Position numbers and translations under genes: made by a program
The notes under the pieces: model-generated
Databases searched by the model: none
What the model was told of the DNA's origin: nothing
What the model saw: only the letters and a program-made list of their open reading frames with translations
Shown: in pieces, positions 7,467-25,050 of the stretch
How positions within the stretch are numbered: the first letter of the stretch is position 1
Layout of the letters: the number at the start of each line of letters is the position of its first letter
DNA from: Bombella apis
GTDB lineage: Bacteria > Pseudomonadota > Alphaproteobacteria > Acetobacterales > Acetobacteraceae
Reading direction: 5' to 3'
DNA length: 64,000 nt
NCBI RefSeq assembly: GCF_018221685.1
Contig: NZ_JAGJTM010000004.1
Location: 186,001-250,000, forward strand

Positions 7467-8381
7467 ATGAGCACCCGCTGCCAGTTTCTGCAAGGCTGTT
7501 CCGCTCTTTCCCTGGCGGTCTCTGCGGGAGGGGGCAGGCGTGGTCTGGCCCGAGGGACATGCCCTGTGAAGGCCATGCTGCATGATGAGTCTGGCTTTTA
7601 TCCTCTCTGGCCGGAGGTTGGTACCATGGAGCAGCCCCGTGTTGCGCGGGGAGGGCGTGTTTACGGTATTCATGTGCCGGGTCTGCATGTCATGCGGCCC
7701 GTCCATCCGAATGGATCGGCTGTCATCATCGCAGCAGGTGGTGGTTATGGGCATATTGCCGTAGGGCATGAAGCCTTGCCTGCGGCCCGGTGGCTGGTCT
7801 CGTTGGGTGTGACTGTTGCCATTCTTCTGTATCGTCTGCCAGGCGAGGGATGGGCTGAAGGCATGGAGGCCCCACTGGCGGATGCCAGACAGGCCCTGCA
7901 TCTGTTACGGTCCGGGCAGGTTGGTGGAAGTGGTAATGTGCGGCGTGTGGGTTTCATGGGTTTTTCTGCCGGGGGGCACCTGCTGGGTCTGACAGCTTTG
8001 CAGGACCATGATGCGCCACCGGCCCTGCTGATGCTGCTTTATCCGGTTGTCAGTGTTGCGCCTCCTTTTACCGGGAGTCGTACCAGTCGGGTGTGTCTGG
8101 GGGATAATCCGACAGTGGAACGGGCTGTCCGCTGGTCTCTGCCATCGCATGTCCGGGATGATGCGCCGCCTTTGTTCATGGCTCATGCGCTGGATGACCC
8201 GATCGTGTCACCTGAGCAGGAGACGTTGCTGTTGCAGGCCTATCAGCGTCATGGGCGACCTTGTGAAGACCACCGTTTTGCAACTGGGGGTCATGGCTTT
8301 GGTCTGGGGCGCAGGAATGGATCAACAGGGCAGTGGCCCATTCTGGCCGAATTCTGGATGAGACGGCAGGGGTTCCTGTGA
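7467..8381 (+). CDS. alpha/beta hydrolase (esterase/lipase, BD-FAE-like) with degraded Tat signal
   Basis: About 304 residues. The oxyanion-hole segment IIAAGGGYGHIA, nucleophile elbow MGFSAGGHLLG, acid in AHALDDPIV and base in ATGGHGFGL form a complete hydrolase triad of the esterase/lipase (acetyl-esterase-like) group. The N-terminus STRCQFLQGCSALSLA looks like a twin-arginine signal whose second Arg codon has become TGC (Cys), with a short hydrophobic stretch behind it. Homologues with this start normally read S-T-R-R-x-F-L, so export may be lost. It is divergent from phoU and shares the region with the Pho-box-like repeat. Natural substrate unknown. Confidence 0.75.
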   Translation: MSTRCQFLQGCSALSLAVSAGGGRRGLARGTCPVKAMLHDESGFYPLWPEVGTMEQPRVARGGRVYGIHVPGLHVMRPVHPNGSAVIIAAGGGYGHIAVGHEALPAARWLVSLGVTVAILLYRLPGEGWAEGMEAPLADARQALHLLRSGQVGGSGNVRRVGFMGFSAGGHLLGLTALQDHDAPPALLMLLYPVVSVAPPFTGSRTSRVCLGDNPTVERAVRWSLPSHVRDDAPPLFMAHALDDPIVSPEQETLLLQAYQRHGRPCEDHRFATGGHGFGLGRRNGSTGQWPILAEFWMRRQGFL

Positions 8382-9049
8382 ACAGCCATACCGTCCCGTT
8401 GGGGCTGGTGACATTCCTGCGCAGGGTTTCGAATTTGTGCTGCCGTTATCTGTGGGGAGGGAATGGCGTTGCTTTCTTCACGGGGGCCGGCAGCCTCATC
8501 GGGAATCGTATGATTTTTGTCCGTAGTGGCCCCCGTGCAGGATTCGGGTGGCTGTTGGCAACATTGACCAGCTGGCGTCAGGAGAGACTGAATCGCTTCG
8601 GGCCGATGGTTCAGAAGACTGTATGTGGAGACTTTTGGGGTGTTGAAGAGGAGAGCATGACAATGGTCTGCTGTTTCTTCATCTTTTTCATGAGCGTTTA
8701 TGAACAGTCATATAGATTAAAATTCATTAATTGTAGGGTGTGATGCGGGTCTGTTTATTGGATGTTCTAAGGAATTTTAGCAAAATTTTTCATAATTTAA
8801 CTTTAAATTTTGCATTTTAATTTTAATTATTAAAATAAAATGTATATAAATATAAAAATATTATCAAAATGTTAAAAAAAATACAAAGTAAAATTATGAA
8901 ATAAATTGTGTACTTAAAGTTATTCTAAAGTTAAACGGGAGGAATTTATCATTTTTCTGTTGACTATACTTCGTGAATATGGATTTATGACCTCGGAAGA
9001 CGCATATGGGGCTTCCAACTCCTTAATAGAAAGTGTGTGGAGACTTGAC
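8382..9049. other. 668-base gap, strongly AT-rich between about 8740 and 8960
   Basis: No gene could be supported here. One plus-strand frame (8333-8743) is open but lacks a start signal, domain or coding character. From about 8740 the sequence turns into runs of A and T quite unlike the GC-rich surroundings, ending just before the double-glycine peptide gene. It probably carries that gene's promoter and may mark the edge of acquired DNA. Confidence 0.6.
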
Positions 9050-9394
9050 ATGAGAGCTCTCAGCAACCGCGAGCTGGACAGCGTTTCTGGTGGTTTTGGT
9101 CTGGGCAACCTGATTGGTGGTCTGGTTGGTGGTCTTGGTGGCGGCGCACAGAACCCGCTGGCCGCTCTGGCCCCGGCTGCCAATACCAATACGATCCCGG
9201 CCGTTAGCTACCCGCAGGGGGCTGCTGCTCCTGCTGCCGGTTTCAATCTTGGTGGTCTTGGGCAGCTGCTGTCTCCTATCCAGAGCTTTACCTCTGCTTT
9301 TAGCAATTTCCTGCAGCATCCTCTGCGTACGATCCTGTCTCTTGTAGGGACGGGCATTCAGCAGGCTGTGAACTTCGTCACACGTCTGATCTGA
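9050..9394 (+). CDS. double-glycine leader (bacteriocin-type) peptide precursor
   Basis: A 114-residue product whose first 15 residues, MRALSNRELDSVSGG, match the double-glycine leader consensus (L-x-x-x-E-L-x-x-V-S-G-G) of class II bacteriocins and other peptides processed by C39-peptidase ABC transporters. Cleavage after GG would release about 99 residues, with a Gly-rich hydrophobic N-terminal part (LGNLIGGLVGGLGGG) and an amphipathic C-terminal part (FSNFLQHPLRTILSLVG). I chose the ATG at 9050 because GGAG lies eight bases upstream; the frame also runs back to 8960. No peptidase transporter or immunity gene is in the window, so export machinery must lie elsewhere. Bacteriocin activity is inference. 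Confidence 0.65.
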   Translation: MRALSNRELDSVSGGFGLGNLIGGLVGGLGGGAQNPLAALAPAANTNTIPAVSYPQGAAAPAAGFNLGGLGQLLSPIQSFTSAFSNFLQHPLRTILSLVGTGIQQAVNFVTRLI

Positions 9395-9460
9395 TCCCTG
9401 TCATCCCGCAAGGGATGGCCGTGGGTAGGGTCTCTGTCCAGTCAGGGCAGGCTCTCTGTG

Positions 9461-9498
9461 AGGGGATGGTCCGTATGGGCCATCCCCTTATGTGTTTT
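9461..9498 (+). terminator. stem-loop terminator after the double-glycine peptide
   Basis: GGGGATGGTCC (9462-9472) pairs with GGGCCATCCCC (9477-9487) around a GTAT loop, with one wobble pair, followed by a T-rich stretch. It lies about 70 bases after the peptide stop and just before the convergent Hint-domain gene. Confidence 0.65.
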
Positions 9499-9508
9499 CA
9501 GTGGGTTG

Positions 9509-11068
9509 TCAGGCAAGAGCATAGGGGCCTGCACTGAGTATCTCGAGCTTCAGCAGGCAGCCATTCTGCTGTTTCATGTCAGGCAGTGGCAGATGGGCTG
9601 CCCCGGTGGTCCAGCGGCATGGAACAGGCTCTGTAACATCCCATCCTGTGTTCGGGGCGGCTGTCAGGTGTGATGTCAGGGGGATGTCGGTTCCATCAGG
9701 CTGAACGAGCGTTATCTCGCCGACAAGAACGCCCAGGGTTCGTCTGTCATCCACGAAAGGGCCAATCTGTCTGTCCGGCCGGCTTGTCCGGGACTTGATG
9801 GTGAGAAAGGATGGACTGTTTTTCAGCCAGAACAGGTAGTGTCCGCCATTGCGCTGATACAGGGCGAGTTCGGTCCCCTGTGGGTCCAGCAGGGTCAGGG
9901 CCGGGTCGTCTGTGGTGGCTGGTCTGGCGGTTTCCGGTGGGAATCCCAGCCGGGTTGCCCGCTCTGCCAGTGCAGCATGCAGGGGCTCGACAAAGGCCCG
10001 ATCCACGTTCAGCGGGGCGGCGGCGTCCTGTTGCCAGTCTTTGGGGCGGGAGTGGAAGGACGCTGGGGAGGGAATGGACAGGGCTGCTTCAGGCGTCGTG
10101 AAACTGTGGCGGTTGCCCGTGTCCAGATATGTTTCGGACAGGACACCATTGGCACTGATGATGCGATGCTCATAGGTCTCGATGTGGTAAATGTCGTAGC
10201 TGTCCCGTTCTTCCCGCAGGATCGTTCTGCCATTGACGAGCATACGGGCGGGAATGAAGCTGCCTTTCAGCAGCAGGCAGTGCTCTTCGGTAATGTAGAG
10301 GTCACGGAAGGGGCAGTTCTCCCCGAATGTGTGGCGTCTGATGCGTATTGGCCAGTCGTCAGACGAGGTGGGTGTGACGGATTTCCAGCCACTCCAGCGG
10401 AGATGTTCGATGTGTTTGTGACCATTCCGGAAGACATGGATGGCATCACCGGCCCTCAGCTCCTCAATGGGTCTGGGGCCCTGGGGGGTGTCTATCAATG
10501 TGCCTGCGAGGTAGCAGACAACATCCGCACTGGTTTGTGGTGGTGCCGGAGGTGTGAACGGGGACCAGCGTCCATCCTGCGGGAGGCCATATGGATTGCC
10601 GGGAATGAAGATGTTTGCATGGACCGTGCTGTAGAAGCTGTAATCCTCGTTCATCTGGATGATGGTCTGGTTGGCCGAGGCATCGTAGCGCTGCCGTGTT
10701 GTCGTTCTGGATGTCGTCTGGCCGGAAAATGTGAACTGGAATGTGAAGCCGGATGGTGGTGGGCTGACCAGATGGAGGTCCAGGGAAAGATTGGTCTGGA
10801 GGGAGGCGCTGCTCAGCCCTCCGTAATCAAGAGCAAGCTGTCCACCTGTTCCGGGGTCTATGGTCAGGGAATGGGGGGCAGCCATGAGAGAAGAGCTGAC
10901 GGTGCCATTCCATGATGCCGGTGAGATGACCAGTGACCCTCCCTGAAAGGCGAAAAACGTATCCTCCTGTGGCAACGACAGGTTGTCAGGCATGAAAAGC
11001 GTGGTGTTGATGACAGCTTTACGGGATTGGGGAGTGTACGTGATGGTCTGGTTCTGTGCGACAATCAT
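9509..11068 (-). CDS. Hint-domain-containing exported-type protein
   Basis: 519 residues. The first 180 residues are Ser/Thr/Gly-rich and beta-strand-like. A Hint (hedgehog/intein, Hint_2-type) domain follows, starting at Cys185 in CYLAGTLIDTPQGPRPIEEL, continuing through YITEEHCLLLKG, and ending near IISANGVLSETYLDTGNR. A C-terminal region of about 190 residues has no motif I know. Proteins of this architecture are abundant in acetic acid bacteria; Hint domains can self-cleave, but the role of this group is not known to me. It lies between the double-glycine peptide and a truncated autotransporter. No signal peptide is visible. Confidence 0.75.
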   Translation of the reverse strand: MIVAQNQTITYTPQSRKAVINTTLFMPDNLSLPQEDTFFAFQGGSLVISPASWNGTVSSSLMAAPHSLTIDPGTGGQLALDYGGLSSASLQTNLSLDLHLVSPPPSGFTFQFTFSGQTTSRTTTRQRYDASANQTIIQMNEDYSFYSTVHANIFIPGNPYGLPQDGRWSPFTPPAPPQTSADVVCYLAGTLIDTPQGPRPIEELRAGDAIHVFRNGHKHIEHLRWSGWKSVTPTSSDDWPIRIRRHTFGENCPFRDLYITEEHCLLLKGSFIPARMLVNGRTILREERDSYDIYHIETYEHRIISANGVLSETYLDTGNRHSFTTPEAALSIPSPASFHSRPKDWQQDAAAPLNVDRAFVEPLHAALAERATRLGFPPETARPATTDDPALTLLDPQGTELALYQRNGGHYLFWLKNSPSFLTIKSRTSRPDRQIGPFVDDRRTLGVLVGEITLVQPDGTDIPLTSHLTAAPNTGWDVTEPVPCRWTTGAAHLPLPDMKQQNGCLLKLEILSAGPYALA

Positions 11069-11251
11069 GAGCAGCTATCTTGGGCGGTATCCGGTTTTTT
11101 CGTGGAAACCGTCTGAAGATAGGGGCTGTTCCCTTATCAGAGATTAAGCCAGTCCTTCATAATTACCTGCACAGGTCCAGTCTGTTACGGTCTGTTCTGT
11201 ACTGTGGGCAGGCGTATCCCCAGGGGGCAGCTGGTAGGAGCCACACCCAAC

Positions 11252-11285
11252 AAAAAGGGCGGACCATGGTGGTCCGCCCTTTTCT
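11252..11285 (-). terminator. bidirectional-type terminator after the autotransporter
   Basis: AAAAGGGCGGACCA (11253-11266) and TGGTCCGCCCTTTT (11270-11283) form a long near-perfect stem with a TGG loop, A-rich on one side and T-rich on the other. It can stop transcripts from both sides and sits 25 bases beyond the autotransporter stop. Confidence 0.85.
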
Positions 11286-11309
11286 GTCTGCGATACCGGA
11301 GATACGGGA

Positions 11310-13375
11310 TCAGAACTTCATCTTGAAGGTTCCCGTTGCACCGCTTTCGGTCGACTGGTTGCCGTACTGGCCAATGTAGGACAGATCCAGATCAATACGA
11401 TCAGTCAGGCGGGCCGTCATGCCAGCATTCACGACAGCCGCATTGCTGGAGAGCAGAACACCGGCGACGTCCATGTCGCTGGGCCCGCCTGTTGTGGTAA
11501 AGGCCTCATGCTGGCGGGACCCCAGGCGACCGAAGCCATGGCGGTAGGCTGCCGTGAGGTGCGGCATGAAGATCGTCCGGCCGATATTCAGCGTCGTGGC
11601 GGCACGGAAACCGAAGGTTGAGAAGGTGACCCCCGTATCCGTCCCACGGCTGCGCAGGGCGGCCTCGTTGCCATGCTCATGATAGCTGTTGGTCTGCATG
11701 TTCACATACGCCACGTTCATGAACGGCTCGAAGACGCCGCGCCCGGTGCGCATCTTGTAGCCCAGTTCAGCGAATGTCTGTGCAGTTCCACCCAGATAGC
11801 CACTGCTGAGGCGCCCGCCATAATCACCAACGGCGACATGCCGACGGGTGTTGATGACATTCCAGCTATAGGCAGCGCCCAGTCGTAGGTTCAGGCGGCC
11901 CCAGTGTGTCCCGGCATAGGCCCCAACAGTGATGTTGTTGCTGTTGCCGGAGGAGGAGCGCCCCCGCTGGATGTTGAACTGGGAGTGACCATAGGACAGC
12001 AGCCCGCCGACACGCCAGTTGCTGCGGTTGATCGGCGCATCCGCCCCCATGATGAACCCGGCCGTGTTGTGGTGCATGAGGGCAGCATTGCCATCTCCGC
12101 TGTTATGACCGAGGGCTCCGTAAGCCTGCCCCCACAGGACAGCATGGTCGGAATAGCAGGCGCCATTCTTTTTATGCGTCTTCAGGTCATAGAGGCTCTG
12201 GCCATTATGGCCATAATCGCAGTCGCTGTTTGCCAGACGGTCCATCACCGCATTGCGGATGTAGAAGCTGTCCTGAATCAGCGCCGTACGGATGGAGGCG
12301 TGCAGCTCACCGGAGAGATTGTCCAGCGCCCGCCGTGCCTGGTCCCGTGTCAGGCCTGTCATGGCCTGGCTGAGCGCCGAGCTGGGAGCGAGATGGTCCA
12401 GCCCCTGGCCGGTGGTAATCTGGTTGCGGGTTTCACCTACCGTGCTGAACGAGCTGGCATTGCGGCGCAGGACGATGTCAACAGCATCGGCACTGTAGGC
12501 AAAGGCTGGGTCCAGATAGGCATACTGGGGTGCCAGATTGCTCGACAGTTTTTCGTCAAACTGGCCGTTGACACCGCCGGATGCCGTCAGGACACGGTAA
12601 GCCTGCCCATATGTCAGGCCCGCGCCTGCATTCTTCAGCTGGAGGTCCAGAGTCCCGCCCTGCAGATAAGCCGTGCCCGTGACAGCCAGACGGTCTGAGG
12701 TGAGTTCATGGAACCCGTTGCCTTTTGCCGTGTCAATGGTCCGGCCCGTCGTATCGCTCGTCCCGCGGATCCGCAGGACAGAGCCCTTGGCCATGGTCAG
12801 GTTACCACTGACATGCAGGGTGGAGAGCGCATCAGAGCCGATCGCACCGGGGGCGACCGTAGCACCGGAGACAGCCTGGGTTGAGCTGACGGTGCCGGTA
12901 CCACGCAGGGTTGCGCCATTGCCGACGGAAACCGGGCTGGAACCATTACGACCATCCACTTCCAGAGTTGCCTGGTTCTGGATCATCGTCGGGCCTGAAT
13001 AGGTGCTGTCACCTGTCAGGATTTCCGTCCCGCCATCGATGGTCAGGCCACCATTGCCGGAAAGAGACCCGGCGTAGGTGTCACTGGCCTTTGTCAGGAT
13101 GAGCGTGCCATCCAGCGTGCCGTTGCTGTTTCCTGCGAGGGACCCGGCGGAGGCATTGTTGCTGGTGACGGTCAGGTTCTGGCCATCATGGGTGAGGGTA
13201 CCGCCGATGGTGCTGTTGTCGAGTGTCAGGGACCCGTTGCCCGTATTGGTGACAGCACCATCCGTTTTGTTGCCCCCGGCGAGGGTCATGACGCCGCTGT
13301 TTGTTGCGGAGGCCTGAGACCCGCCCGTGGCGCTGAAGGTGGCATTGGCAGCGTTTGTGATGGTCCCTGCGGAAC
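11310..13375 (-). pseudogene. autotransporter, 5'-truncated (passenger part plus beta-barrel)
   Basis: Type V secretion protein fragment. The C-terminal 280 residues are an autotransporter beta-barrel ending in FKMKF, with typical strands such as AVLWGQAYGALG and FEPFMNVAYVNM. Upstream is a Gly/Ser/Thr-rich passenger with passenger-associated repeats (TYAGSLSGNGGLTIDGG, STYSGPTMIQNQATLEVDG). The coding character starts abruptly at about 13375 with SAGTITNAANATF. There is no signal peptide and no convincing start codon; the frame runs on into AT-rich DNA encoding implausible sequence. The first in-frame ATG (13289) is inside a repeat. The barrel looks intact, but a protein without a Sec signal cannot reach it, so I call it a remnant. 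Confidence 0.7.
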
Positions 13376-13819
13376 AACTTGTTGGGATAAGTAATTTTAT
13401 GGTGTATGCAATATGTGGTTGTGGTGAGGAAGTTTTTGTAAAATTAGCATTGAAGAGAATATAAACATTTGCAATTGAAAATTTATTTTATAATTATCCT
13501 TAATTAATTATTCAAGAATGGTTTTTCATGGCTATTTTTCGTTATTTGTAAGTCGTATCGAGCAGAGCGACCCGGCACTCGGCCTCATGGGTTCTTCTGT
13601 GCGTTTTTCCACGGAGACTCCATCATTCTACAGAGATAGTATTTTGATACCAGCAGGAAGGCAGTCAGAGATCATGCCGACTGCAGGTTATGATGTAGGT
13701 GGAATGTTTGTCTTTTTCATGGCTTTCCTGAACCATGTTTTGGAAAATTGGCCTTGTGTCGGGGAGAGCCGAATGGAGGCCGGAGCATGTTGGTGTTTGC
13801 AGGCGTCCCGGGCAGGGGG
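13376..13819. other. 444-base region without a supported gene, AT-rich at its left end
   Basis: The junction with the autotransporter fragment is sharp: GC-rich repeat coding sequence gives way at about 13376 to A/T-rich DNA extending to about 13520, followed by sequence of average composition. A short inverted repeat AACAA-C-TTGTT (13373-13383) straddles the junction. The plus-strand frame 13518-14000 runs antisense into the LysR gene and has no domain. I see no gene. Confidence 0.5.
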
Positions 13820-14707
13820 TCAGGGCAAGCTGGTCTGCAACCAGGTTTCTTCGGCTCTGTTCAGGGGGGTGTTGCGGCGGACAGCGAGTGAAATGGTGAT
13901 GCGGATGGTCGGGTCCTGCAACGGGCAGCAGTACAGCCCGTCATTCTGGGCCGGATTGTGGAAGGCCGCCGGAATGATGGTGACGCCGACACCCGCCTGA
14001 ACCATGGTCAGCAGGAGGGTTGTGTCACCCGTGCGCCCGGTGACATGGGGCGCGGCCCCGTGACTGGCAAAGGCTTCCGAGATGAAACGGTTTATCTTGA
14101 AGTTCTCATTCATGAGGACGATCTTCTCATCCAGAATGTCCGTGAAGGAGCAGCTCTCCCGGCCTGCGAGCCGGTGTGAGTCGGCCATCAGCAGGCAGAG
14201 TTCTGCCTCTGCAAAGGGGATGGTGCGCAGCTGCCTGTTCTGGACAGGCCCTATGAGGGCGGCGATGTTCGTGTGATGGCCGAGAAGCTGGGCCACCAGC
14301 CTGTCGGAGGGATGTTCCTCGATGTTCAGCACGACATCGGGATAGAGGCTGCAGAACTGCCGGATGATGGGACGGAAGTAGATCGCCCCCAATATGGGTG
14401 GGAGTGCCAGATGGACCGTCCCCTTCAGGGGGCCTGAATCATCCGCCATCGCCCGGTGAAGATTCTGTTCGGCCTCAAGCAGACGTTCAGCATGAAGAAA
14501 GAAGGTCTTGCCCTTTTCCGTCAGGGTGATGGTCTTGTGGGACCGCTCGAAAAGGCGGACGTCCAGTTTGTTTTCCAGAGAGCGGATGCCCATGCTCAGG
14601 GAAGGCTGGCTGATGTGCAGCTGGTCACTCGCACGGCTGAAGCTGCCCTGTGTGGCAACGGCCATGAAGTAGTGGAGTTCCCGGAGAGTCAGTTGGGGGT
14701 ATGGCAT
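13820..14707 (-). CDS. LysR-family transcriptional regulator
   Basis: About 295 residues starting MPYPQLTLRELHYFMAVATQ. The N-terminal winged helix-turn-helix shows GSFSRASDQLHISQPSLSMGI, ELENKL-like SLENKLDVRLFERS and TLTEKGKTF, all standard for LysR regulators; the remainder is the effector-binding fold (PLKGTVHLALPPILG; GVGVTIIPAAF). An ATG 14 codons upstream would add a short Tyr-rich extension; neither start has an obvious ribosome binding site. It is divergent from the decarboxylase gene, the usual arrangement of a LysR regulator with its target, and a T-N11-A palindrome lies between them. The inducer cannot be read from sequence. Confidence 0.9.
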   Translation of the reverse strand: MPYPQLTLRELHYFMAVATQGSFSRASDQLHISQPSLSMGIRSLENKLDVRLFERSHKTITLTEKGKTFFLHAERLLEAEQNLHRAMADDSGPLKGTVHLALPPILGAIYFRPIIRQFCSLYPDVVLNIEEHPSDRLVAQLLGHHTNIAALIGPVQNRQLRTIPFAEAELCLLMADSHRLAGRESCSFTDILDEKIVLMNENFKINRFISEAFASHGAAPHVTGRTGDTTLLLTMVQAGVGVTIIPAAFHNPAQNDGLYCCPLQDPTIRITISLAVRRNTPLNRAEETWLQTSLP

Positions 14708-14717
14708 AGGGAAAAGG

Positions 14718-14732
14718 CTATAGTCTGTATAG
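14718..14732. promoter_or_regulatory. LysR-type T-N11-A operator candidate
   Basis: CTATA-GTCTG-TATAG is a perfect inverted repeat with 5-base arms and fits the T-N11-A rule of LysR binding sites (T14719, A14731). It lies 11 bases upstream of the regulator's chosen start and about 90 bases upstream of the divergent decarboxylase. Confidence 0.55.
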
Positions 14733-14781
14733 AAATATAATATTATCATATTGAAGATGGGCTGGATAGGCTTTCCTCAGA

Positions 14782-16457: not shown

Positions 16458-16584
16458 GGTCTCGTTCTGAAACCGGGTGGGCAGGCGCACTCCGTGTCTG
16501 CCCACCAAGGGGAAGAATGGTACGTCAGGATGATGTCCAAGAGATGCCTGTCAGGCCGATTGTTCAGAGTTTTCATGAAATGTC

Positions 16585-16660
16585 TGGCGTCCCGTACGGG
16601 ATTCGAACCCGTGTTGCCGCCGTGAGAGGGCGGTGTCCTAGGCCTCTAGACGAACGGGAC
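16585..16660 (-). tRNA. tRNA-Glu (anticodon CUC)
   Basis: Read on the minus strand, the 76 bases fold into a standard cloverleaf. The acceptor arm GTCCCGT pairs with ACGGGAC, the anticodon stem CCGCC pairs with GGCGG around the loop CTCTCAC (anticodon CTC), and the T arm carries GGTTCGAATCC. The discriminator G and a genomically encoded CCA follow. It lies between the decarboxylase and the HIT gene. Confidence 0.96.
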
Positions 16661-16715
16661 TAAAGGCGTGAGCCCTCTCTAGAGGGAACGGCGGGGAAGT
16701 GCAAGAGGGAAAGAT

Positions 16716-23259: not shown

Positions 23260-23442
23260 ATTAACAAAATGACTTGCCTGATATGGCTTTCCACGGTGAT
23301 ACTGGTCGTGGGAGTAATCCGGTGAAGGAAGCTGTCCCATATGACAATGTGGGATGAACGGATCGGGACAGCCCAGTGTATCTGATTGTCAGGTTCCAGA
23401 AGCTGGCAGTTGCGTCATGTGTGGAGTACAGGGTGGGTTGTG

Positions 23443-25050
23443 ATGTATGACGTCCTTATTATTGGTGCGGGATTTGCTGGACTGACACTGGCCTATCAGC
23501 TCAGGAAAAAGTCCAGTGACCTGCGCATTGCCATTGTGCATGATTCTTCCTTTCCCCTCGATGACATATCAGACAAGGTCGGTGAGTCCTTCAATGAAAT
23601 AGGGGCTGTTTATTTTGATCAGATGCTCGGGCTGAAGGAATTCATGAAGGAGCGTTACCCGCGGAAGCTGGGAATGCGTTTTTTCAAGATCAATGAATCA
23701 TCCTATCAGGAAATGGGTTACAATAATTTCACTCCCAACCATGCCTTTCATTTCGAGCGTGGGAAGCTTGAGAATGATCTTTTTGACCTTGTCAAAGACA
23801 AGGTGGATTTTTACCTGAACCATAAATATCTTGATTTCGAAACGGTTGATGGTGAAAAGCACGTTCATGTTCTGGACAGGAATGATAAAAGTTCCAGAAC
23901 GTTGAAAGCGCACTGGCTTGTTGATGCTGCCGGGCTGAAGAAGCTGCTGGCCCGTAAATTCGACCTCACACACAGGTTGCCACTCAACCATTCGTCTGTC
24001 TGGTTCCGGGTTGGGGGTGGTGTCAATGTGGATGATTTTCTGCCACTGACCAGCGACAACCCTTTCACGACGGAGAATCGGTCATGGAGCTCCATTCATC
24101 TGGAAGGTGTAGGATACTGGGTATGGATCCTGCGTCTTTCCGAGAACGTGACAAGTGTCGGCATCATTTTTGATGAGAACATGTACGAGTTCCAGGATCT
24201 CGCCACATGGGAGAAGACAAAGCTCTGGTTGAGAGACAATGTCCGGGTCCTGATGGATTATCTTGATGAGGAACAGTTTCCCATCATGGACTTCAGGATC
24301 TTGAGGCGGTTTGCTACCCAGTCTGATTATTGGGTGAGTGATGAGCGCTGGGCTCTGGTGGGGGATGCCTACGGAATATGGGACCCCTACTATTCCAATG
24401 GATTTGACCTGATTGGCATGCAGAATACGATCCTGACAGAGCTGATCCTCGCAGAACGTGCTGGCCAGGAGATCCATCAGCGCATTCAGGGGGCCAACCG
24501 GTTCATAAGCGATGTCATGAGGGGGTTTGCCGCCACCTTCACGGATTTCTACTCACGGAAAGACCGCTGGTACTACATCTGTTCAAAATATAACGTCGAC
24601 ATGGCCGTCTATTTCCCGATATTGGCCACCATCGTGCATAACTCCTTGGAGTCCATGTTTGTGGATGAAGACCCGGTATTCCGGGACAGGGTCCTGTTTT
24701 ATCTTGAGGAGGGTGGAGGTATCTATTTTCAGCTGATCCAGCTCCTGGCGTCTGACGAGTTCAAGAACAATGGGGTGGACGGGTACGATTACATGCCGCT
24801 CAATGCGGATACATATCATGCCTTCGTCCCGGAAATGGATATCCCCTATCATGAGAAAGAGCGGGTATTTCCCATTCTGGAAAAGAACTGCAATCTGCTC
24901 TGGTGCGTTTTCCATTATCTGAAATCAGGCCGCAACTATATGGATTTCATAAAGAACGGGGCCTATTTTGCCATTACGGAACAGACGGACCCCGAGCGTT
25001 ACAGGGATAACCCGGACCAGCTGGAAGCTGATCTGTTCCATTCTGCCTGA
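23443..25050 (+). CDS. FAD-dependent halogenase-like monooxygenase
   Basis: About 535 residues starting MYDVLIIGAGFAGLTLAYQL (FAD-binding GxGxxG). KVGESFNEIGAVYF corresponds to the GES segment of flavin-dependent halogenases; GYWVWILRLSENVTSVGII resembles their W-x-W-x-I region, with the second Trp replaced; LVGDAYGIWDPYYSNGFDL corresponds to their GDAAG-x-x-DP motif. The C-terminal 200 residues are long and rich in aromatic and acidic residues. No NRPS, PKS or tailoring genes flank it. Its codons are visibly AT-richer than its neighbours', which suggests acquisition by transfer. It could be a halogenase or a related hydroxylase. Substrate unknown. Confidence 0.65.
   Translation: MYDVLIIGAGFAGLTLAYQLRKKSSDLRIAIVHDSSFPLDDISDKVGESFNEIGAVYFDQMLGLKEFMKERYPRKLGMRFFKINESSYQEMGYNNFTPNHAFHFERGKLENDLFDLVKDKVDFYLNHKYLDFETVDGEKHVHVLDRNDKSSRTLKAHWLVDAAGLKKLLARKFDLTHRLPLNHSSVWFRVGGGVNVDDFLPLTSDNPFTTENRSWSSIHLEGVGYWVWILRLSENVTSVGIIFDENMYEFQDLATWEKTKLWLRDNVRVLMDYLDEEQFPIMDFRILRRFATQSDYWVSDERWALVGDAYGIWDPYYSNGFDLIGMQNTILTELILAERAGQEIHQRIQGANRFISDVMRGFAATFTDFYSRKDRWYYICSKYNVDMAVYFPILATIVHNSLESMFVDEDPVFRDRVLFYLEEGGGIYFQLIQLLASDEFKNNGVDGYDYMPLNADTYHAFVPEMDIPYHEKERVFPILEKNCNLLWCVFHYLKSGRNYMDFIKNGAYFAITEQTDPERYRDNPDQLEADLFHSA

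What the first reader, a model, noticed from the sequence alone, without database searches (positions are those of the whole stretch)
8382..13819. Island of exported proteins with AT-rich borders: double-glycine peptide, Hint protein, broken autotransporter
Three unusual surface or secreted-type genes sit side by side, bounded by sharp AT-rich stretches (about 8740-8960 and 13376-13520) in an otherwise GC-rich window. The peptide has a class II bacteriocin leader but no transporter or immunity gene nearby; the Hint protein could be a self-cleaving secreted factor. The combination suggests acquired competition or adhesion genes, but nothing shows that they work together.
Basis: partly seen in the sequence, partly recalled or inferred. 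Interest (0 to 1): 0.65.

Follow-up and report, generated by a model that had tools for sequence, protein, structure and literature searches.

The report
Exported double-glycine peptide in bee bacterium
A bacterium of the bee hive carries a small protein with a microcin-type export tag; no exporter lies beside it, but the matching three-part exporter sits elsewhere in the same genome and, in the related genomes examined, is present or absent together with such proteins, which points to a peptide-secretion system that an earlier bacteriocin scan of the genus did not report.

Summary
In detail: a 114-aa double-glycine (GG) peptide, a Hint_2 protein and a 5'-truncated autotransporter lie between the window's only two AT-rich stretches. 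The host is a Bombella species. In 11 genus genomes, GG-leader peptides were found in 7 of 7 with the exporter and 0 of 4 without. One genome keeps an intact exporter with no GG peptide beside it, so the island's peptides are its likely cargo. A relative lost both loci, leaving scars. The AT-rich borders are best read as the 5' zones of the peptide gene and of the autotransporter gene, not as insertion borders. The island recurs in 6 of 11 genomes; its coding GC is normal; in 5 of 6 carriers a tRNA-Glu copy (one degenerate) marks its left end. The autotransporter here is a ruin; the Hint protein is intact and under purifying selection. Export by the type I system is well supported, by inference. 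What the mature peptide does (antagonism or surface matrix) is open: no immunity gene was recognised at either locus. New member of a known kind; moderately interesting.

The parts
8740..8959 (+). AT-rich zone directly upstream of the peptide gene (GC 0.19); left 'border' of the finding
   Evidence: the 200 bp upstream of peptide A orthologues have GC 0.20-0.29 in 6 of 6 carriers
8960..8965 (+). TTGACT, -35-like hexamer within TGTTGACT, identical in 6 of 6 carriers (promoter role inferred)
8995..9016 (+). dyad GGAAG-N12-CTTCC, both arms identical in 6 of 6 carriers; 5'-UTR hairpin or operator (role unknown)
   Evidence: covariation is no better than in shuffles
9038..9045 (+). ribosome-binding site TGGAGACT
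9050..9394 (+). GG-leader peptide A, 114 aa; leader 9050-9094 (MRALSNRELDSVSGG), mature 99 aa 9095-9391
9509..11068 (-). Hint_2 protein, 519 aa; Hint domain residues 184-317 (10118-10519); Cys185 and T260-E-E-H263 invariant in 5 of 5 aligned
11310..13377 (-). 5'-truncated autotransporter: beta-barrel and last passenger stretch, no signal peptide; first in-frame start at 13289
13376..13520 (-). AT-rich zone; by position the former 5' zone of the autotransporter gene; right 'border' of the finding
   Evidence: by position and composition, no alignable sequence
13697..13749 (+). remnant of the 5' end of an isochorismatase-family gene that lies next to the autotransporter in B. mellum and B. favorum
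   Evidence: 75% over 53 bp, E 0.002; family of the intact gene:
16585..16660 (-). tRNA-Glu (ctc); near-identical tRNA-Glu (ttc) copies mark the left end of the island in relatives

Best explanation
Peptide A is a cargo of a type I (PCAT) secretion system that works in trans. It is made from its own AT-rich promoter as a 114-aa precursor. The C39 peptidase domain of the genome's single PCAT (contig C1, unlinked) recognises the 15-aa leader MRALSNRELDSVSGG and cuts after GG, and the 99-aa mature protein leaves the cell through PCAT-HlyD-TolC. The same exporter serves two larger glycine-zipper GG peptides beside it. SHOWN by sequence: leader, exporter genes, co-occurrence, purifying selection. 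INFERRED: cleavage, export, promoter. For the mature protein I commit to a role at the surface of the producer or of neighbouring cells: an N-terminal GxxxG-rich stretch and an amphipathic C-terminal helix suggest membrane insertion or self-assembly. Antagonism of neighbours in the manner of class II microcins or Caulobacter Cdz is the likeliest single function (about 0.45), a surface or matrix role like cyanobacterial EbfG next (about 0.35). The Hint protein is an intact, probably exported and self-cleaving neighbour whose link to the peptide is only statistical. The autotransporter in this genome is a dead remnant.
For: (1) One C39 PCAT in the genome (E 1.4e-36), with HlyD and TolC genes passing Pfam and two more GG peptides; Gln, Cys, His and Asp of the C39 site (motif recalled) are visible in 7 of 7 PCAT sequences, each an open frame. 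(2) A leader profile finds 24 GG peptides (22 at E<1e-5) in 7 of 11 genus genomes; the same 7 have the PCAT and the 4 without it have none; one-sided exact P 0.003, relatedness ignored; the ten leaders of the profile came from carriers, so leaders of another type would be missed. (3) In G118 the PCAT, HlyD and TolC genes are intact but no GG peptide was found beside them; apart from a weak His-rich hit (E 0.014) its only GG peptides are A and B of this island. (4) G032, placed among carriers by a four-protein tree, lacks the peptides, PCAT, HlyD and most of TolC but keeps about 97 bp of the TolC 3' end, and at the other locus lacks peptide A, Hint and barrel but keeps a 5' autotransporter piece and the isochorismatase gene: both were lost. 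(5) dN/dS of peptide A 0.12-0.38 over 10 pairs. (6) GxxxG in mature A: 6 observed, 2.4 in shuffles, P 0.011. (7) 19 of 20 GG peptide genes examined (of 24) have GC 0.19-0.38 in the 200 bp upstream, background mean 0.53, n=161 ORFs.
Against: No immunity gene was recognised at either locus (by inspection), which weakens the antagonism reading. Peptide A is below Pfam's and NCBIfam's bacteriocin cut-offs. Export was not observed. G032 has also lost other surface genes (most Hint copies broken, one autotransporter hit), so the double loss may be general decay of surface genes. Eleven related genomes are few independent events. AT-rich upstream DNA is not special to GG peptides: 6 of 161 background ORFs are as low as peptide A here, and autotransporter genes have it too. 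The AlphaFold model of the peptide is unusable (mean pLDDT 51).
Confidence: 0.68

Rival explanations
1. The peptides are surface or matrix proteins rather than toxins, like EbfG1-4 of Synechococcus elongatus, exported by a C39 PCAT and needed for biofilm.
For: No immunity gene recognised at either locus; sequence well kept: the last 13 residues are identical in 5 of 5 species aligned (the sixth carrier, G118, differs at two of them, both to Cys); neighbours are surface-type genes; the EbfG paper describes GG or GA motifs and a C39 peptidase needed for biofilm (PMC4997328, abstract and passages).
Against: Similarity to EbfG was not tested; the weak profile hits are mostly to bacteriocin families, and peptide B of relatives passes the TIGR03949 cut-off (22.3 against 21.5 bits).
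Confidence: 0.33
2. The block is a recently acquired competition island and its AT-rich borders are its insertion borders.
For: Clean site in G300 (L107 8897/8914); tRNA-Glu at the left end in B. intestini, B. favorum, B. pluederhausensis and G118, degenerate in B. mellum; a count shows it to be an extra copy in B. favorum and B. mellum, not counted in the other three.
Against: Coding GC 0.595 against 0.593; AT-rich zones recur as upstream zones; same order in 6 of 11 genomes; no integrase noticed by eye among the island's ORFs; synonymous divergence of Hint 1.3-1.9 in 9 of 10 species pairs (0.27 between B. intestini and B. favorum), so its presence is old within the genus.
Confidence: 0.2
3. 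Peptide A and Hint are leftovers of a decaying locus and do nothing in this genome.
For: The autotransporter and the isochorismatase gene beside them are ruined here and peptide B is absent.
Against: Both reading frames are intact, dN/dS well below 1, upstream hexamer, dyad and ribosome site fully kept, exporter intact.
Confidence: 0.1
4. The Hint protein is a working partner of the exporter or its peptides, for example a self-cleaving surface protein that anchors or releases them.
For: The island Hint orthologue is in the same 6 of 11 genomes as peptide A; a further Hint gene at the exporter locus is intact in 7 of 7 PCAT genomes (in G301 two copies, 46-49% identical), broken in G032 and absent from that place in G300 and G273 (G296 not read), with copper genes between it and the exporter.
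Against: PCAT-less genomes keep other intact Hint_2 paralogues; no GG leader on Hint; structure model unusable (mean pLDDT 47.6).
Confidence: 0.15

Closest known systems
Class II microcins with a double-glycine leader (colicin V / microcin V type)
   Same: 15-aa leader of the same plan (the ColV leader is recalled, not fetched), small mature protein, C39 PCAT + HlyD + TolC in the genome.
   Different: Exporter unlinked; no immunity gene recognised; not from Enterobacterales; peptide A below the curated bacteriocin cut-offs.
Cdz contact-dependent glycine-zipper system of Caulobacter crescentus (PMC5380434; abstract and passages)
   Same: Alphaproteobacterium; two small glycine-zipper proteins and a type I exporter: the C1/C2 pair at the Bombella exporter has GxxxG excess (16 against 10.0 and 17 against 8.5 in shuffles).
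   Different: No CdzI-like three-TM gene recognised; peptide A is unlinked and longer (114 aa against 86 and 84); no Cdz sequence was compared.
EbfG1-4 / PteB of Synechococcus elongatus (PMC4997328; abstract and passages)
   Same: Several GG or GA peptides and one C39 PCAT; the word 'immunity' does not occur in that text.
   Different: There the peptide genes lie beside one another and are required for biofilm; here one peptide lies apart and the role is untested.
Hint_2 domain proteins (PF13403)
   Same: Full-length profile match, invariant Cys and TxxH.
   Different: Function unknown; 2-7 matches per genome in 11 Bombella genomes, some of them fragments; auto-cleavage untested.

Membership tests
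GG-leader peptide exported by a PCAT type I system | 15-residue double-glycine leader | tested here: met
   MRALSNRELDSVSGG; leader profile E 1.8e-10 (this leader is one of the ten in the profile)
GG-leader peptide exported by a PCAT type I system | C39-peptidase ABC exporter with HlyD and TolC partners in the genome | tested here: met
   unlinked, contig C1
GG-leader peptide exported by a PCAT type I system | cleavage after GG and secretion | not testable with these tools
   needs C39 assay or mass spectrometry
Class II bacteriocin / microcin | cognate immunity gene close by | tested here: not met
   no conserved small ORF recognised at the island or exporter locus (by inspection); an unlinked immunity gene is not excluded
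Class II bacteriocin / microcin | curated family cut-off (Bacteriocin_IIc 27.1; TIGR03949 21.5 bits) | tested here: not met
   peptide A 15.2 and 18.7 bits; peptide B of relatives passes TIGR03949 at 22.3
Class II bacteriocin / microcin | antibacterial activity | not testable with these tools
   none
Cdz-like contact-dependent killing | glycine-zipper protein pair beside a type I exporter | tested here: met
   for C1/C2 at L016 5756-6172 and 6406-6816; not for peptide A, which is unlinked
Cdz-like contact-dependent killing | small three-TM immunity protein in the cluster | tested here: not met
   by inspection of ORFs; no TM predictor was run
Hint_2 protein | Pfam PF13403 with N-terminal Cys and TxxH block | tested here: met
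Hint_2 protein | self-cleavage at the Hint Cys | not testable with these tools
   none
Type V autotransporter | beta-barrel domain | tested here: met
   186.7 bits
Type V autotransporter | signal peptide and passenger | tested here: not met
   no in-frame start codon above 13289, stop at 13488-13490; 5' end present in B. favorum and B. mellum
tRNA-associated genomic island | tRNA copies at the ends, empty site | tested here: met
   in relatives; the left copy is missing in the window itself; clean site seen in G300 only
tRNA-associated genomic island | foreign composition and integrase | tested here: not met
   coding GC normal; no integrase noticed by eye among the island's ORFs

The most novel reading that the evidence does not exclude
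Bombella runs a dispersed secretion economy: one PCAT-HlyD-TolC exporter serves several GG peptides, some unlinked (a glycine-zipper pair beside it, peptides A and B in a tRNA-marked island), all under a shared AT-rich upstream design, and each locus carries its own self-cleaving Hint protein as a surface partner. Together they would form an antagonism or community-assembly system of a bee symbiont without classical immunity genes.
Probability: 0.15. Interest if true: 0.72.

Novelty: new member of a known kind. Interest (0 to 1): 0.46.

Why it matters
Bombella colonises beehives and is associated with protection of larvae (PMC9147383, abstract). That paper, a scan of 22 Bombella genomes with BAGEL4, reported 'No bacteriocins were found' (abstract and passages); whether the window's strain was among the 22 is not known. 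Here 7 of the 11 genus genomes searched hold a PCAT-HlyD-TolC exporter and two to four confident GG peptides each, several of them away from the exporter, where cluster-based mining would miss them. If exported, they are candidates for how these bacteria shape the hive microbiota or hold together in it, and they can be tested by simple deletions in a harmless organism. The finding also warns that AT-rich flanks can be promoter zones rather than marks of gene transfer.

Tried and rejected
Start at TTG 8960 for the peptide: rejected, the conserved upstream 'WRL' is the ribosome site. AT-rich stretches as insertion borders: rejected. The near-identical block at window 16574-16685 as a mobile repeat: it is a tRNA-Glu gene. 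G032 as a clean empty site: at first it looked exact (window 8381/13829), but a 5' autotransporter piece and the isochorismatase gene lie on the far side of its truncated PDC gene, so it is a loss with rearrangement. In G273, G296 and G301 the esterase neighbour was not found, so the island's site was not read there. DNA pattern for leaders: 24 matches, 12 in the reversed control; I kept 16 and dropped 8 as not leaders: four ScpB segments (G273, G296, G300, G301; the G300 one passes Pfam ScpB) and L052, L053, L055, L071. Covariation in the upstream dyad: no better than shuffles. 8-9 bp tRNA matches near both ends in the window (8392-8400, 13802-13810): chance level (E 1.3 and 0.33). Structure models: both too poor, so no fold search was made. 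PDB profile search with Hint: only de novo TIM barrels over 27-28 residues, treated as chance. Peptide A family-wide: 10 of 299 genomes at E<=0.01; the five outside the genus are weak (E 3.5e-5 to 0.0085), and only L006 of these showed GG leaders by the pattern. C39 hits in the family include short proteins that are not PCATs.

Literature searches behind the statement that nothing in print was found: Bombella + bacteriocin, 29 papers, 20 listed, one read in passages; Acetobacteraceae + double-glycine + bacteriocin: 0 papers; acetic acid bacteria + microcin: 4 papers, listing only; Hint domain + acetic acid bacteria: 1 paper, passages. Searches gave background listings. Only the open library was searched.
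Full report
WHAT IS THERE. The finding's coordinates hold three genes between an esterase-type gene (7467-8381) and a LysR gene (13820-14749): a small GG peptide (A), a Hint_2 protein and the 3' part of an autotransporter gene. The host is a Bombella species with a 2.04-Mb genome: the four named loci with relatives of the peptide are B. mellum, B. intestini, B. favorum and B. pluederhausensis, and the window is 91% identical to B. mellum DNA over 6.8 kb next to the island. The two AT-rich stretches are the only ones of their kind in the window, while the coding part between them has the window's own GC (0.595 against 0.593).

THE PEPTIDE AND ITS EXPORTER. The leader MRALSNRELDSVSGG follows the plan of class II microcin leaders (recalled). 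The genome has one C39-peptidase ABC transporter. It lies on another contig, C1:191157-193346, with an HlyD-type adaptor, a TolC-type channel and a divergent pair of longer GG peptides, C1 and C2. A profile built from ten leaders finds 24 GG peptides in the 11 genus genomes, 22 of them with E below 1e-5; all 24 lie in the seven genomes that have the PCAT, none in the four that lack it. The exact one-sided probability is 0.003, but the genomes are related, the independent events are few, and the leaders used came from carriers. In G118 the three exporter genes are intact and no GG peptide was found beside them; its only confident GG peptides are A and B in the island. This is the best argument that the exporter serves the island in trans. 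C39-domain matches are common in the family: 99 of 299 genomes, short non-PCAT proteins included.

LOSS IN A RELATIVE. G032 falls among carriers in a tree of four proteins from the exporter neighbourhood, rooted at midpoint; the split that parts it from G243, G301, G300 and G273 has support 85, other inner nodes are weak (31, 51). At the exporter locus it lacks both peptides, PCAT, HlyD and most of TolC, and keeps about 97 bp of the TolC end; its Hint gene there is broken. At the island locus it lacks peptide A, Hint and the barrel, but a 5' autotransporter piece with its upstream DNA (78.5% over 396 bp) and the isochorismatase gene survive on the far side of a truncated PDC gene. So both unlinked loci were lost in the same lineage. 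Against a strong reading: G032 has lost other surface genes too. G300 has a clean site without remnants, the esterase gene directly beside LysR, and the exporter loci of G300 and G273 lack exporter and Hint without scars. In G273, G296 and G301 the island site was not read, because the esterase neighbour was not found.

THE BORDERS. The 200 bp upstream of the start of A have GC 0.20-0.29 in 6 of 6 carriers, and 19 of the 20 GG peptide genes examined (of 24), including those at the exporter locus, have 0.19-0.38, against a background mean of 0.53 over 161 ORFs (D2 of G301, at 0.53, is the exception; 1 to 16 of the 161 background ORFs are as low as the others). TTGACT, a dyad GGAAG-N12-CTTCC and TGGAGACT are identical in all six carriers. 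The left border is therefore the promoter zone of A. Intact autotransporter genes have the same kind of zone: 0.13-0.23 in B. favorum, 0.17-0.22 in B. mellum. In the window such a zone abuts the autotransporter remnant directly, with the signal peptide and most of the passenger gone; a 53-bp remnant of the neighbouring isochorismatase gene follows at 13697-13749. The right border is thus best read as the orphaned 5' zone of the autotransporter. This last step rests on position and composition, not on alignable sequence.

THE ISLAND. In B. mellum the order is esterase, degenerate tRNA-Glu, A, Hint, autotransporter (reaching the contig end), and on another contig autotransporter 5' end, isochorismatase, LysR, PDC, tRNA-Glu(ctc); that the two contigs join inside the autotransporter is inferred. 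In B. intestini, B. favorum and B. pluederhausensis an intact tRNA-Glu(ttc) lies just left of A; G118's contig ends in one. B. favorum has three tRNA-Glu matches where G000, G032 and G300 have two; copies were not counted in the other three. This is the pattern of a tRNA-associated island, but no integrase was noticed and the window has lost the left copy. Peptide B, between Hint and autotransporter, is present in G170, G211, G243 and G118 and absent in the window and B. mellum; A and B match only over leader and first residues (hhalign, 29 columns). Family labels of the flanking genes (isochorismatase, TPP-enzyme/PDC, HIT, MatE, multicopper oxidase, CopB, S9 peptidase) pass Pfam.

SELECTION AND FORM. 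dN/dS (NG86, five species, 10 pairs) is 0.12-0.38 for A and 0.12-0.22 for Hint. Mature A has 6 GxxxG pairs (2.4 in shuffles, P 0.011), C1 16 (10.0, P 0.009), C2 17 (8.5, P below 0.001), B none. The C-terminal stretch of A is predicted helical in a low-confidence model and moderately amphipathic. The Hint protein has Cys185 and the T260-H263 block invariant in 5 of 5 sequences; reading these as catalytic rests on recalled Hint chemistry.

WHAT IT WORKS LIKE AND WHAT IT IS. By leader and exporter it is a PCAT-exported GG peptide. It works like a class II microcin or a Cdz/EbfG protein up to export; I do not file it as a bacteriocin, because no immunity gene was recognised and the curated cut-offs are not reached, although peptide B of relatives does reach one. 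A published scan reported no bacteriocins in 22 Bombella genomes.

Noticed in passing
L072 (G118:C27:31165-31187, -): A short His-rich GG peptide, MRVLQSSELDQVSGGHHHHHGGEQSGGEHHHHHHSFFHHLFSGIKFLFGWKSH, possibly metal-binding; weak leader score (E 0.014). The exporter locus of the genus lies among copper-resistance genes.
   Followed up: no
L020 (G118 peptide A): G118's peptide A has five Cys in its mature part, the other five carriers none; two of them replace residues of the otherwise identical C-terminal 13-mer.
   Followed up: no
L086 7209-8820: G301 has four GG peptides in a row beside its exporter, unlike those of other species; two share an FFPPE/YFPPD-x-EAMK-like repeat.
   Followed up: partly
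window 16585-16660; L013 9455-9530; L014 9452-9527; L015 9444-9519; G299:C7:179131-179197: tRNA-Glu copies mark the left end of the island in relatives (degenerate in B. mellum); in the window itself only the ctc gene on the right remains.
   Followed up: yes
G032: L105, L106, and Hint fragments on C12 and C21: Relative with decay of surface genes: exporter deleted, several Hint genes broken, one autotransporter hit, PDC truncated.
   Followed up: partly
L016 202-1947 and 2230-5669: A further Hint_2 gene accompanies the exporter locus in 7 of 7 exporter genomes, separated from it by copper-resistance genes, and is broken or absent in the three exporter-less loci read (G032, G300, G273).
   Followed up: partly
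window 23386-25050: Gene with lower third-position GC (0.61) than its neighbours; passes Pfam Trp_halogenase (39.6 bits); in G032 only a 90-aa ORF matches it in the stretch read (L106 18312-18584, near the stretch's end).
   Followed up: partly
L015 7191-8969: In B. pluederhausensis a 592-aa ORF with a GmrSD restriction N-terminal domain (108.8 bits) lies between the esterase and the peptide.
   Followed up: partly
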